Shown here: piece by piece, positions 10,065 to 15,733 of the stretch
Numbering within the stretch: the stretch's first letter is position 1
Layout: each line of letters begins with the position of its first letter
Assembly (NCBI GenBank): GCA_001600455.1
Contig: BCKC01000005.1
Coordinates: 3,472,001-3,536,000 of the forward strand
Reading direction: 5' to 3'
Source of the DNA: Endocalyx cinctus
Lineage: Eukaryota; Ascomycota; Sordariomycetes; Amphisphaeriales; Apiosporaceae
DNA: 64,000 nucleotides
Translations under genes and position numbers: made by a program
The notes under the pieces: generated by a model
What the model was told of the DNA's origin: nothing
The model's input: the letters and a program-made list of their open reading frames with translations, nothing else
Database searches by the model: none

Positions 10065-11846
10065 TTACACGGCGAAGCCCCCGGAATTAACCTGCCTCGG
10101 CTCTCCCGCAGCTTCGAAAGTACCATTGGGTAAAAGTCTCACTCCCTGCGCGGTGCTCTGACCGGGCGCGACCCACGTCACGTTATGGCCCAGCGATTGC
10201 ATGTAAGCCACGGTGCTGTTGTCGTACGCGTACTCGAACGAGACCTGGTTGGGGCTGAGCTGGTCGTGCAGACGCGGGCTCGCGAGCGCCTCGAGAGTGG
10301 TCATCCCTTGGTCCAAAACGTGGTGCAGGTTCTGGATCGTCGCGGTGATAATGCGACTGCCGCCGGCCGATCCGATGACGAAGTATAGATCTCCCTCGGG
10401 CGATTCGACGATGGTCGGCGAGATAGACGAGAGGGGCCTCTTGCCGGGTCGGATGAAGTTGGCGGGGCTAGGAATGTAGCCGAAGGCGTTGCTCGAGTTT
10501 GGAATAGAAAAGTCATTCATTTCATTATTCATGATGACACCCGTCTCGGGAACTAACAGCCTAGAGCCGAATATCAGGTTGATGGTCGTGGTGAGACTGA
10601 TGGCCATGCCGCTCTTGTCGGCTACGGCGATATGGCTGGTACCGGGAGTCTCCAAGCTCTCGAGTCCCTTAGGGTCGTACCAAGACACATTCTGCGTGTG
10701 AAAGTCTGATATTTTAGAGCGTACCTCAGCTGCCGTCGCATTCGAGAGCATGGAAGTTTGATACGCATCGAGACCATCGACGAACAACGGGTCTCCCAGC
10801 TCAGCTCGTTGGCCGTAAGCAAATCTGATAGCTTCGTCGAGACGGTGGGTCGTCAGGTTGAGCGCAGCAGGATCACCGAATCCTTCGTAACCATTCACGA
10901 TGTTCAGTGCGCTAAGCGCCACGACTCCACTAGAGGGGGCGCTACAGCTCGTAAGCTTATAATCGCGATATGTGATCTCGGAGGTATTTCGGATAGCGAC
11001 GGTGTAGTTCTTCAAGTCCTCTAAAGTCATTGTTCCTCCCTCGTTCTTGAGAGCAGTGATAGTCGCATTCGCGATCGCACCGGTGTAAAACGCGTCGGCA
11101 CCCTCGTTCGCGATAACCTCCAACGTATCAGCGTAACGCTTTCGGGTTATCGTCTCATTCAACTTGACCCGGTAACCATGCGGGGCAAAATCAATGGCCC
11201 AATTCGGATCCTCCACAAGGAAATTGTCATCAACAGAGTCCATGTATTTAACAAGGTCTTCGGTCACTCGAAATCCGTATCGCGCGACTTTAATCGCAGG
11301 TGCCATTACTTGAGCCCATGGTAAGACACCGTAATTCTTGTGTAGGTGCTCCAACCCTCGAAGCTCACCCGGTACACCACTATGACGAATATCCACGTTA
11401 GCTTACAGAGTTCAATTCCAATCTGAGGGATAGTGTAGTTTTTTCAATTGTTTAATACTGATTTTATCGTACCTTGCAAGACCACCGTATAAACTGAGAT
11501 CCGTGTCGTTGTTGTACATATCTTGAAAAGCAGCGGCGGGTGCGGTCTCTCGGAAGTCGATGAACTCGTATTCCCCGTCGCTGTTACGCACCAACATAAA
11601 GCCACCTCCGCCTAGTCCACTGTGGTACATGCCAATAACGCCAATGCAGAAGACGGTACCAACGAGAGCATCGGCAGCGTTGCCTCCCGCTAGGAGCAAA
11701 TCGGTTCCAATTTTAGAACAAACGGCGCTTTCGGACGCTACAGCTCCTAATTTAGGTTCTTCGCTGTGGAAAGGCGAGGCATTGATCGGGCTCGCTAAAT
11801 ACCCTAATTGCAGCGCAGCGGCTACAATTCGCGCTACGGACGGCAT
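10065..11846 (-). CDS. Gamma-glutamyltranspeptidase, secreted or vacuolar
   Basis: Exons are 11846-11473 and 11379-10065; the 93-nt intron is placed so the product reads GGLASGVPGELRGLE, the conserved small/large domain junction; 562 residues. An N-terminal signal peptide is evident (VARIVAAALQLGYLASPINA). The catalytic threonine is in ETPGTSHIAVADK (about residue 372), where the precursor self-cleaves into large and small subunits. Oxyanion/substrate motifs follow (PLSSISPTIV, GSAGGSR). Many N-glycosylation sequons agree with a secretory route. The enzyme removes the glutamyl group from glutathione and its conjugates. Length is normal for fungal enzymes. Confidence 0.95.
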
Positions 11847-13062
11847 CGCGGATGGTAATCTCTAGGATAGGGCCACGGTAAAATTGAAATAACTATCTTG
11901 GAGCAAGGTAGTTGTTATTGAAGGGCCGGTCTGGTAAGCACCGATCGCGAGAGGGGTAGCTCCTAGTTATCCAGCTTATTGTGGCGGAAGAAATTGGAGA
12001 AAAAGAAAAGAAAAAAAAAAAAAAAGCCAAGCTATCAGCTATATATATGAGATGGTAGAAGCTATTTACTTTATACGGCGTTGCAGTGTTTACGTAGTAT
12101 CATTATCAAACCATAGAATTCTTCCATTTCGGCCCCATCCGTCTGCGTGTTGTTGCAGGGGTTCTATTTCCGTCTCTCGATGCTCGGTGAAGGAAAATGA
12201 AGATCATCGAAGAAGCTGTTGAGATAATTGAGTTATTACTACAGTAATATCCAGTTACCCTGCCTGCCCTGCCTGAAAATTCCGTCATAACCCTGAAAAT
12301 TGGAAAATTAGTGCGAAGATAACCTACGCAGCTACGATACGGCATCTTATCAATAAAGATTACGCAGTAAAAACAAAGATTAAAAGCGGATGGGATCCGT
12401 GTGGGCTACATGGATCTTGATATTTCTTCCTTCCTCTTCGAGATAGAACGAGAGCAAGGGCCTCTACACTATATGTACATCATCAATTGATCAATACGTA
12501 CGTACTCGCAATTTAAGCCTTTATGGTGAAAAGACGAGAGCTTGAATTTATTCCTCCCCACCCTGTATGTCATATCCAGGGCGCGCTGATCTACTTCGTT
12601 TGTGGGGCACATCTTGCATCTTATAGTGGCGTCCAAGAAAAAAGTGTAGTCCCTAGTCAGCATCTACACTGAAAACAAAAATAAAATCTTTACGGTAATT
12701 GGTCAAATCTCAGAAAGATATTTCCTACCCGGAATATATATTACTATTTTCCATTCCTTATGTAAGTTATGGCTGAACTCATGTCAACTCTGTTCGGTTG
12801 AGGCACAGAAGCGGCCGCATTGAAATCACAATGAGACGACCGAACCGGAGCTAGAAGTACACTAAGGCGCCGAAATGGGGGGAAACAGTCAGTCGTGAAT
12901 GAGAATATAAATACAGAGTACTCGCCTACTTTATATCTTTGATGATGAAGAACAAGATGATGATCACTTATATTTTATAAGTTATCATAATATATACTTA
13001 TTTTGACCAAAGTAACAGATCCTTCAGACCCCACATCTAGTTACACGAAGGAAGACGCAAAA
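11847..13062. other. Divergent promoter region between GGT and aminotransferase
   Basis: 1.2 kb of mostly AT-rich DNA lies between two divergent genes. It contains an A run near 12008-12026 and a TATA-like element (TATAAATA, 12906-12913) about 150 nt upstream of the aminotransferase ATG. Small open frames inside show no convincing coding signature. Confidence 0.45.
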
Positions 13063-14400
13063 ATGGTGAAATTACCGGTCTTCGAGGTAGAGCAGTGGAT
13101 GGATAAGTACGAGCTCACGCCCGGCGTCCTCAACATCGCCGAAACGTGTGCCTCGTCTATCTCCGTGAACGACCTCGCTCAATTTTACGACGTCGCGGCT
13201 GATAGCAAAAACCCATCAACCCCGCCTCCCGTTCTAGATCTTTCCACGCGACTTACTTATGGCGCGATCCGCGGGTCCGACGAGCTGCGGCGGAATATCG
13301 CCGATATGTATCAGGCTTCGCCGGAGCAAGTCCTCGTGACGCCGGGAGCTATCGCCGCGAACCATTTGGTGTTTTATACCCTTATCGGGCCTGGAGATCA
13401 CGTCGTGTGCGTCTTCCCGACGTACCAACAGCTATACTCCATCCCCGAAAGTCTTGGCGCCGAAGTTTCGCTTTGGGAGCTAAAGGAAGAGGACAAGTAT
13501 GTACCGGATGTAGAGGTGCTGAAAGGGTTGATCAAAAGAAATACCAAGGTATCTTTTTTTTTTTTTTTTTCATACCTTTATCCAAAATTTATTATGATTA
13601 TATTCTGCTCGAATTCAAATAAAGTATATGGAATCCATTTCACCGAAAAAAAGCCACTAAAACCAAATGACTCGTTCAAGATGATCGTCATCAACAACCC
13701 CAACAACCCCACGGGCGCCACCATCCCCGCATCCGCGCTATCCGAAATCGCCGCCGTCGCCCGAGCTCACGACCTCGTCCTCTTCTCCGACGAAGTCTAC
13801 CGACCCCTCTTCCACAGCCTGCCCGAGGACGTGCCCCCGCCGCCCTCGGCCCTGTCGCTAGGCTACGACCGCGTCGTCGTCACGAGCTCCATGTCCAAAG
13901 CCTGGGCCCTCGCCGGCATCAGGCTCGGATGGATCGCGTCGCCCGACCCCTCCATAATCGCCGGCCTCGCCTCCGCCCGCGATTACACGACCATCAGCGT
14001 CTCCCAGCTGGACGACCAGGTCGCCCGGTACGCACTGGCGCCTCCGACGCGGAGGCGGCTCCTCGCCCGGAACTTGGAGCTCGCGCGCGCGAATCTAGGC
14101 CTACTAACGAGATTCGTCGAGGATCACGCGGACGTGTGCGACTGGGTGAGGCCGACGGCGGGGACGACCGCTTTTGTCAGGTTTCGGAAGAGGGGCGGGG
14201 AGGTGGTGGACGAGGAGTCATTCTGTAAGGACGTGTTGGACAAGACGAAGGTTATGTTCTTGCCTGGACGGAAATGCTTTGGTAGAGGTGGAAAGGAGGG
14301 ATTTGAAGGGTTCGTGAGGATTGGGTATGTTAACGGGACGGACGTGCTAACGCAGGCGTTGGATAATTTGGGAAAATACGTTGATGAAAATCTGAGATGA
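13063..14400 (+). CDS. PLP-dependent class I aminotransferase
   Basis: Exons are 13063-13548 and 13681-14400; the 132-nt intron is a multiple of three and stop-free, with a long T run, so it would be missed by ORF calling; 401 residues. The upstream in-frame extension to 13003 begins with TTG, so the ATG at 13063 (MVKLPVFEVEQWMDKYE) is preferred. Fold-type I landmarks: TYGAIRG, substrate loop PTYQQLY, NNPNNPTGA (cofactor aspartate/asparagine region), SDEVYRPL and the PLP lysine in SSMSKAWALAGIRLGW (about K235). A C-terminal RIGY supplies the carboxylate-binding arginine. The group is often labelled capreomycidine-synthase-like in fungi. The real substrate is unknown. Confidence 0.9.
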   Translation: MVKLPVFEVEQWMDKYELTPGVLNIAETCASSISVNDLAQFYDVAADSKNPSTPPPVLDLSTRLTYGAIRGSDELRRNIADMYQASPEQVLVTPGAIAANHLVFYTLIGPGDHVVCVFPTYQQLYSIPESLGAEVSLWELKEEDKYVPDVEVLKGLIKRNTKVSFFFFFSYLYPKFIMIIFCSNSNKVYGIHFTEKKPLKPNDSFKMIVINNPNNPTGATIPASALSEIAAVARAHDLVLFSDEVYRPLFHSLPEDVPPPPSALSLGYDRVVVTSSMSKAWALAGIRLGWIASPDPSIIAGLASARDYTTISVSQLDDQVARYALAPPTRRRLLARNLELARANLGLLTRFVEDHADVCDWVRPTAGTTAFVRFRKRGGEVVDEESFCKDVLDKTKVMFLPGRKCFGRGGKEGFEGFVRIGYVNGTDVLTQALDNLGKYVDENLR

Positions 14401-14689: not shown

Positions 14690-15733
14690 CTATAACACCA
14701 CGCATTTCGAGGGCAATCCGCATGGGCCTTCTCCCGATTGCTTCCCCTTCTTTTTCGGGTTTTCTGTGTCGTTTGGTTTTTCTGCTGATCCCGCCGCCGG
14801 TTTTTGTGTCGCGGCAGCGTCGTTCTTCGCCACTCCGTTCTTCACCACCCCATTTTTCTCGTCACCGCCATGTAGTCAACCCGTGTACTTGGCGACGGTC
14901 TTGTAGAACTCCTCGCCCTGGGTGGTAGCGAGACCGATCTCCTTCTCGGAAGGCTGGCGCGAGCCGTCCGCGCCCGCGAAGGTACCGGCACCCCAGGGGC
15001 CACCGCCGTGCACCTCCGAGAGGTCGGACATGGCGGCGAAGGCCTTGGCGAATCCGAACGGCACGTAGACGATGCCGTGGTGGGCCAGGGTCGACATGCA
15101 GGCCAACGCCGTAGACTCCTGGCCGCCGCCGAGGGAGCCGGTCGAGATGAAGAGGCCGGCCATCTTGCCGTAGTACCCGCCGGTGGCCCACTGCTTGCCC
15201 GTCTTGTCCCAGAAGGTCTTCCACTGCGCCGGCATGTTGCCGTACCGCGTCGGGACGCCGAGGAGGAAGGCGTCGTACCCTTCGAGGACGGACGGGTCCT
15301 CGATCAAGGGGATGTCGCTCGGCTGGCCCGGGGCGTACATCTTGGACAATACGTCCTGGGACAAAGTCTCGGGGACCTGGTACAAGTCCACCGTGCCGCC
15401 GGCCTTTTCGATACCGGCCTTCTCAGCCTCCGCTAGCTTGCGGATGTGGCCGTACATGGAGTACTATTGGAGCAAAGTCAGTCTACGTTCTAGCTGAAGT
15501 GTTTCGAGGGTGCTATAATATTTTATGATCTCGTGGAAACATGGGAGATCCGATATACACCTTATTATGATATATCTTCTAACCATCACTCTCCGACATT
15601 TACTTGATATATGCAGAAACGGAGGCGTGTATAGTTTGCTGTCTACCCCGCATAGGCTAACAAGTGCGAGAGAAGGGAAGAGCAATAGGGGATCATATTA
15701 ACTTACAAAGACGATAGCGATCTTGGGAGCCAT
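14690..15733 (-). CDS. NAD(P)H:quinone oxidoreductase, WrbA/Pst2/Alt a 7 flavodoxin, with readthrough extension
   Basis: Exons are 15733-15707 (MAPKIAIVF) and 15463 onward, with a 243-nt intron, phase 0. The core frame stops with TGA at 14876, giving 204 residues, the same length as the Alt a 7 allergen family. FMN-binding landmarks: IAIVFYSMYGHIRKLA, PTRYGNMPAQWKTFWD, STGSLGGGQE and EVHGGGPWGAGTFAG. It reduces quinones by two electrons in stress defence. The stop is TGA CTA, and the same frame continues for 61 more codons (14875-14693) to TAG at 14690. The tail is GC-rich and hydrophilic, has a KKKGK patch and ends CGLPSKCVVL, a CaaX box; AT-rich DNA begins right after it. Yeast Ycp4 and some fungal relatives carry lipidated C-termini (established). 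Here I infer two isoforms, soluble and prenylated. Confidence 0.88.
14873..14878 (-). promoter_or_regulatory. Stop-codon readthrough context, TGA CTA
   Basis: The flavodoxin stop codon (14878-14876) is followed immediately by CTA (14875-14873). UGA CUA is the established high-readthrough context described for fungal and animal dual-targeted enzymes. Downstream, 61 sense codons end in a perfect CaaX motif, which makes the context likely to be functional. Confidence 0.7.

What the first reader, a model, noticed from the sequence alone, without database searches (positions are those of the whole stretch)
14690..14878. Flavodoxin stop codon TGA CTA followed by a 61-codon in-frame tail ending in CaaX box CVVL
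Seen: the core frame of a WrbA/Pst2-type quinone reductase stops at residue 204 with TGA CTA. The same frame then has no stop for 61 codons, stays GC-rich, contains a KKKGK patch and two cysteines, and terminates exactly after CVVL. AT-rich DNA begins directly after the second stop. Established: UGA CUA is the compact context that drives readthrough in fungal and animal enzymes, creating hidden targeting signals; Ycp4-like flavodoxins can be lipidated. Inference: readthrough makes a minor geranylgeranylated membrane isoform of an otherwise cytosolic quinone reductase. A hidden prenylation signal, rather than a peroxisomal one, would be a new use of this mechanism as far as I know.
Basis: partly seen in the sequence, partly recalled or inferred. 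Interest (0 to 1): 0.88.

Follow-up and report, generated by a model that had tools for sequence, protein, structure and literature searches.

The report
Hidden membrane anchor behind a stop
In this fungus the gene for a quinone-reducing enzyme carries, just behind its stop codon, a conserved tail ending in a lipid-attachment signal, so one gene probably makes a soluble enzyme and, now and then, a membrane-anchored one.

Summary
On the minus strand, a 204-residue WrbA/Pst2-type quinone reductase ends at TGA CTA (14878-14873); a 61-codon in-frame tail follows and ends in CVVL before TAG. The tail is real: 52 of 180 fetched relatives end in the same CGLPxKCxxx box, across three classes of fungi. 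Of 46 listed Xylariales-type relatives 44 stop near residue 204 (34 at the very same residue), so the stop is neither new nor an assembly error.

How the long form is made is less certain. TGA CTA is a known leaky fungal context and follows only 1.2% of TGAs in sampled DNA of this genome. All 18 in-frame introns found that could remove the stop have poor donors. The start of the tail weakly resembles relatives' tails in frame. The genome's GAPDH gene also ends TGA CTC before a PTS1-like tail. Against this, a long and a short Podospora-type protein share an identical core, pointing to alternative splicing there, and no annotated long form lies in the window's own supported clade. Relatives' DNA could not be reached. 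I put readthrough at about 0.6, splicing at 0.25. A prenylation signal behind a readthrough stop was already predicted for Drosophila Syx17, so this is a new variant, not a new kind.

The parts
15707..15733 (-). exon 1 of the quinone reductase gene, MAPKIAIVF
   Evidence: sequence; the MAPK N-terminus is shared by the 30 relatives aligned
15464..15706 (-). intron 1, GTAAGT ... AATAG, 243 nt
   Evidence: sequence; joining its flanks gives the MAPKIAIVFYSMYGH start of relatives
14879..15463 (-). exon 2, core of the WrbA/Pst2-type flavodoxin-like quinone reductase up to AKYTG
   Evidence: NCBIfam flav_wrbA 6.8e-52 and PRK03767 1.6e-55; S. cerevisiae Pst2 structure 5mp4, 9e-69; up to 86% identity to Xylariales relatives
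14873..14878 (-). first stop with its leaky context, TGA CTA
   Evidence: sequence; stop position shared by Xylariales relatives; CTA follows 1.2% of TGAs in 264 kb of this genome
14693..14875 (-). 61-codon tail in frame behind the stop, predicted disordered
   Evidence: weak in-frame similarity of its first 31 residues to relatives' tails; pLDDT below 50 for residues 198-257 of P0001
14741..14755 (-). polybasic patch KKKGK in the tail
   Evidence: sequence; lysine-rich stretches also precede the box in many relatives
14693..14731 (-). conserved prenylation module EGPCGLPSKCVVL; CaaX box CVVL at 14704-14693, second cysteine upstream
   Evidence: 52 of 180 fetched relatives end in CGLPxKCxxx
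14690..14692 (-). second stop TAG; an AT-rich 3' flank with AATAAATAAAAAA follows

Best explanation
This is a Pst2/Ycp4-type FMN quinone reductase gene, apparently single-copy, that makes two proteins. Most ribosomes stop at UGA and release the 204-residue soluble enzyme. A minority misread UGA in the UGA-CUA context and add a disordered, lysine-rich tail ending in CVVL. The tail should be geranylgeranylated on its last cysteine (X = Leu, general rule, recalled) and perhaps acylated on the upstream cysteine, which would place this isoform on a membrane where it can reduce membrane quinones. Shown: the anatomy, conservation of the box in relatives, the shared stop position. Inferred: readthrough as the mechanism, lipidation, membrane location, and an ancestor with a constitutive tail.
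For: Box: 52 of 180 fetched relatives end in CGLPxKCxxx, named as Sordariomycetes (with Xylariaceae sp. FL0662B and Apiospora), Leotiomycetes and Eurotiomycetes (placement of names recalled). Stop: of 46 Xylariales-type names end near residue 204, 34 of them in Gly at the window's own position. Context: CUA after UGA suffices for readthrough in Ustilago maydis (PMC4207609, section 6 read) and follows 108 of 8899 TGAs here. Introns: the 18 in-frame GT-AG introns of 30-250 nt that remove TGA and keep CVVL use only GTCGCC, GTTGAC or GTCTCG as donor, none enriched before branch-point/acceptor signals, whereas GTAAGT is. The first 31 tail residues score better against 52 relatives' tails than all but 19 of 1000 shuffles; the other two frames do not (122 and 673 of 1000). 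GAPDH of the same genome ends TGA CTC followed by LSASHKL. P0001 has no second match in the genome. Candida albicans Ycp4 has an extension ending in CAAX, and these proteins were seen at the plasma membrane (PMC4556627, passages).
Against: In the supported 9-row clade that holds the window all 8 relatives are annotated short, and the two Xylariales-type long forms lie outside it, so the tail is not shown in the nearest kin. P0041 (long) and P0108 (short) share 189 of 189 core residues, best explained by splicing in that species. The similarity test is weak, and the next 16 tail residues do no better than shuffles (607 of 1000). No stable RNA fold behind the stop (z = 0.00); no G after CUA, which PMC4207609 (section 11 read) says helps. 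Codon bias is weaker in the tail (GC3 0.57 against 0.92). PGK, TPI and RPE of this genome show no UGA-CU context (read by eye).
Confidence: 0.6

Rival explanations
1. Alternative splicing: a weak intron that includes the TGA is mostly retained (short form) and sometimes removed, joining the core to the CaaX tail. The product is nearly the same, the mechanism differs.
For: Three long/short pairs share nearly all of the core: P0041/P0108 100% of 189, P0012/P0063 99.5% of 189, P0037/P0163 99.4% of 160 residues, the last two between differently named Colletotrichum. P0041 comes from a 1058-base contig and reads through the place of intron 1, so it is probably a transcript (inference). In the window a donor G|GTTGAC lies at the stop and the TCAGCAG acceptors keep the frame (96 and 99 nt). 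Annotated long forms in Fusarium and Colletotrichum start their tails as if an intron were removed here.
Against: Donors in the window are poor. The apparent junctions differ between close Fusarium (VAN|SQAK, VAN|QAK, T|AAPEV, QG|DSQAK), as if gene callers were stepping over a stop. The stretch that the CAG-acceptor introns would largely remove is open in frame and weakly resembles relatives' tails. Splicing does not account for CTA.
Confidence: 0.25
2. Relic: the tail is a leftover of an ancestral constitutive CaaX extension, cut off by the stop and no longer made in useful amounts.
For: Nine Hypoxylaceae-type relatives end differently (GSGSA type), so some lineages may have dropped the tail; no tail is annotated in the window's nearest kin; codon bias is weaker in the tail.
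Against: The frame is still open for 61 codons and the box EGPCGLPSKCVVL is intact, although the stop position is shared by relatives no more than 86% identical.
Confidence: 0.1
3. A-to-I mRNA editing, which Sordariomycetes use in sexual fruiting bodies, turns UGA into UGG.
For: Stop-loss editing occurs in over a hundred genes in Fusarium graminearum and Neurospora crassa (PMC11156358, passages).
Against: Over 70% of edited sites have U before the A, and the stop codons described as edited are UAG and UAA; here the A follows G.
Confidence: 0.03

Closest known systems
UGA-CUA readthrough isoforms of metabolic enzymes (Ustilago Tpi1, Rpe1, Pgk1; human LDHB, MDH1)
   Same: metabolic enzyme, UGA CU(A) context, C-terminal targeting tail, mechanism alternates with splicing between species (PMC4207609, abstract and sections 6 and 11; PMC9549241, passages)
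   Different: those tails carry a peroxisomal signal (PTS1); this one carries a prenylation box on a 61-residue tail whose box is also found where no stop interrupts
Ycp4 / Pst2 flavodoxin-like quinone reductases of yeasts (C. albicans Ycp4, S. cerevisiae Pst2)
   Same: same enzyme family; C. albicans Ycp4 has a C-terminal extension of about 90 residues ending in CAAX (PMC4556627, passages)
   Different: there the CAAX is described as part of the protein; here it lies behind a stop
Drosophila Syx17 readthrough extension with predicted farnesyltransferase signal (PMC3840789, Table 2, passages)
   Same: prenylation signal predicted in a readthrough extension
   Different: an animal gene, a single prediction in a screen; Syx17 as a SNARE protein is recalled

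Membership tests
WrbA/Pst2-type NAD(P)H:quinone oxidoreductase | sequence match over the curated cut-off | tested here: met
   TIGR01755 176.3 bits (cut-off 132.5), NF002999 188 bits (cut-off 141); Pst2 5mp4 9e-69
WrbA/Pst2-type NAD(P)H:quinone oxidoreductase | FMN binding and quinone reduction | not testable with these tools
   needs purified protein
CaaX prenylated protein | cysteine fourth from the end, aliphatic a1a2, at an exposed C-terminus | tested here: met
   CVVL; tail disordered in the model; the same box ends 52 of 180 fetched relatives, the KC being part of the search motif
CaaX prenylated protein | lipid attached in the cell | not testable with these tools
   needs labelling or mass spectrometry
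functional stop-codon readthrough | leaky stop context | tested here: met
   TGA CTA; 1.2% background; context known from PMC4207609
functional stop-codon readthrough | conserved coding sequence behind a conserved stop | tested here: inconclusive
   box conserved as protein and stop position conserved, but no relative with both could be read as DNA
functional stop-codon readthrough | extended protein made from unspliced mRNA | not testable with these tools
   no RNA, ribosome or peptide data
alternatively spliced dual isoform | usable splice sites around the stop | tested here: inconclusive
   18 in-frame candidates, all with poor donors

The most novel reading that the evidence does not exclude
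In Xylariales a UGA-CUA readthrough signal controls a prenylation switch on a quinone reductase. The tail is an ancestral, once constitutive CaaX tail that different fungal lineages now express in three ways: always, by alternative splicing, or by readthrough. As far as my searches saw, it would be the first conserved lipid anchor gated by readthrough, with the soluble-to-membrane ratio open to control by readthrough efficiency.
Probability: 0.5. Interest if true: 0.78.

Novelty: new variant of a known kind. Interest (0 to 1): 0.68.

Why it matters
Readthrough in fungi is known for peroxisomal targeting. A conserved prenylation box behind a leaky stop would show that the same trick can split an antioxidant enzyme between cytosol and membrane, and would give a lineage in which constitutive, spliced and readthrough versions of one tail can be compared. 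It would also mean that many of the roughly 204-residue Sordariomycete entries named minor allergen Alt a 7 or quinone oxidoreductase may be missing a membrane isoform.

Tried and rejected
Searching with the tail region alone (P0001 residues 186-257) gave 11 candidates and no match at E <= 10; the full-length and profile searches worked.

Relatives' DNA was looked for in genome contigs (205 pattern matches) and viral contigs (20); none encoded a relative. Conservation of TGA CTA and dN/dS therefore remain untested.

RNA structure behind the stop: no excess stability. Donor statistics from 264 kb are noisy: several non-consensus hexamers also rank high. They serve only to show that the candidate donors are not enriched. 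Open-frame length was dropped as evidence, since 6 of 25 TGA-ended ORFs do as well.

Assembly error was rejected because the stop position is shared by independent relatives. Selenocysteine was not pursued: PMC4207609 states that fungi lack the machinery.

Tail comparison was done three times: with 14 tails caught by a narrow pattern (0 of 300 shuffles as good), with 52 tails that still held some core residues (4 of 400), and with 52 cleaner tails (19 of 1000). The last is the one to trust. P0085, whose model leaves the frame after CGLP, was dropped from the 52. The 180 relatives are the best-scoring rows of two searches that found 6238 and 5718 matches, so they are no random sample.

Full report
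What is there. The gene lies on the minus strand at 15733-14690. Exon 1 codes for MAPKIAIVF, intron 1 is GTAAGT...AATAG, and exon 2 runs to AKYTG, giving 204 residues before TGA CTA at 14878-14873. The frame is then open for 61 codons and ends EGPCGLPSKCVVL-TAG. GC drops from 0.55 in the tail to 0.35 after the second stop. The core is a WrbA/Pst2-type quinone oxidoreductase, nearest solved relative S. cerevisiae Pst2, 5mp4, and is the only match found to this protein in the 44.8 Mb genome (more distant FMN_red hits exist). Its nearest relatives are Xylariales such as Camillea, Nemania and Biscogniauxia, at up to 86% identity.

Is the tail real. Yes. Of the 180 relatives fetched, 52 end in CGLPxKC plus three residues. 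By their names they include Fusarium, Colletotrichum, Sordariales, two Xylariales-type fungi (Xylariaceae sp. FL0662B, Apiospora), Botrytis, Rhynchosporium, Penicillium, Aspergillus and Paecilomyces (placement of names recalled). KC was part of the motif used to pick them; the first cysteine was optional and is present in all 52. The last four residues vary (CVVQ 22, CVIL 6, CTIL 6, others). Of the fetched relatives with 230-300 residues, only P0085 lacks the motif. Candida albicans Ycp4 has an extension ending in CAAX as well (PMC4556627, passages). The simplest history, inferred, is an ancestral constitutive CaaX tail that Sordariomycetes moved behind a stop.

Is the stop real. Among entries bear names of Xylariales-type fungi (picked by hand). 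Of these 44 end near residue 204: 34 in Gly exactly where the window does, nine Hypoxylaceae-type three residues later, one as AFP. Two are long. In the tree of 37 cores, long and short forms are mixed: Whalleya (short) pairs with FL0662B (long) at 100/99, and Colletotrichum, Fusarium and Podospora show both forms; only 10 of 33 inner branches are well supported. In the supported 9-row clade that holds the window (97/84), the other 8 rows are short, so the tail behind the stop is seen in the window but not tested in its nearest kin.

How the long form is made. For readthrough: CUA after UGA is sufficient in Ustilago maydis (PMC4207609, section 6 read). It follows 108 of 8899 TGAs in 264 kb of this genome, and of 25 long TGA-ended ORFs this one alone has it. 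Of 18 in-frame GT-AG introns (30-250 nt) that could remove the stop and keep CVVL, every one needs GTCGCC, GTTGAC or GTCTCG as donor; none is enriched before branch-point and acceptor signals (8 seen with 8.0 expected, 5 with 11.5, 13 with 11.9), while GTAAGT is (32 with 12.6), in a noisy test. The first 31 residues behind the stop score better against relatives' tails than all but 19 of 1000 shuffles; the other frames give 122 and 673 of 1000, and the following 16 residues 607 of 1000. The same genome's GAPDH gene ends TGA CTC followed by LSASHKL; many fungi make peroxisomal GAPDH by splicing or readthrough (PMC9549241, passage), though HKL as a PTS1 is recalled.

Against readthrough, or for splicing. 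P0041, a long form on a 1058-base contig that reads through the place of intron 1 and so is probably a transcript, has the same 189 core residues as the short P0108 of Podospora aff. communis. This is best explained by alternative splicing in that species. Of the 52 long forms it is the only one without an ncbi source, so the other 51 may rest on gene models. Those in Fusarium and Colletotrichum show junctions that differ between close species, which looks like gene callers stepping over a stop. There is no stable RNA fold behind the stop (z = 0.00), no G after CTA (helpful according to PMC4207609, section 11 read), and weaker codon bias in the tail (GC3 0.57 against 0.92). PGK ends TAA, TPI TAA and RPE TGA TTT in this genome, read by eye. 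Editing is unlikely because the A of UGA follows G (PMC11156358, passages).

What it would do. In C. albicans these proteins were seen at the plasma membrane and are proposed to reduce ubiquinone and limit lipid peroxidation (PMC4556627, passages). The tail is predicted disordered (pLDDT below 50 for 198-257, overall mean 66.8), lysine-rich, with two cysteines; Leu as last residue points to geranylgeranylation, while the CVVQ relatives would more likely be farnesylated (general rules, recalled). A small share of anchored enzyme beside a soluble majority would be the natural outcome of readthrough.

Novelty. Searches for readthrough together with prenylation, CaaX, farnesylation or Alt a 7 showed no fungal case in what was listed: 0 papers, the top 20 of 1067, the top 20 of 841, all 12, the top 20 of 32. 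One precedent exists: Dunn et al. 2013 list a farnesyltransferase signal in the readthrough extension of Drosophila Syx17 (PMC3840789, passages), repeated in a review (PMC4973966, passages). Schueren et al. 2014 screened human extensions for prenylation sites (PMC4359377, passages). The case is therefore a new variant of functional readthrough, stronger than the precedent because the box is conserved across classes, but with its mechanism unproven.

Noticed in passing
L005 (G000:C4:1834210-1837563), 3' end of the GAPDH gene: GAPDH ends AAG TGA CTC TCC GCT TCT CAC AAG CTC TAA: a UGA-CU context followed by LSASHKL, a PTS1-like tail, suggesting a readthrough-made peroxisomal GAPDH in this fungus.
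   Followed up: partly
window 13060-14400, + strand: Class I/II aminotransferase gene (PF00155, 1.4e-38) convergent with the reductase; the two 3' ends lie about 290 bases apart.
   Followed up: no
window 11412-11861, - strand: Exon of a gamma-glutamyltranspeptidase (PF01019, 1.2e-22).
   Followed up: no
relatives P0136, P0148, P0152, P0168 (Fusarium): Fusarium seems to keep a second paralogue whose tail ends GG(A/L)CGLPTKCVVQ, with no sign in the protein of a skipped stop, beside the gene with short and long forms.
   Followed up: no
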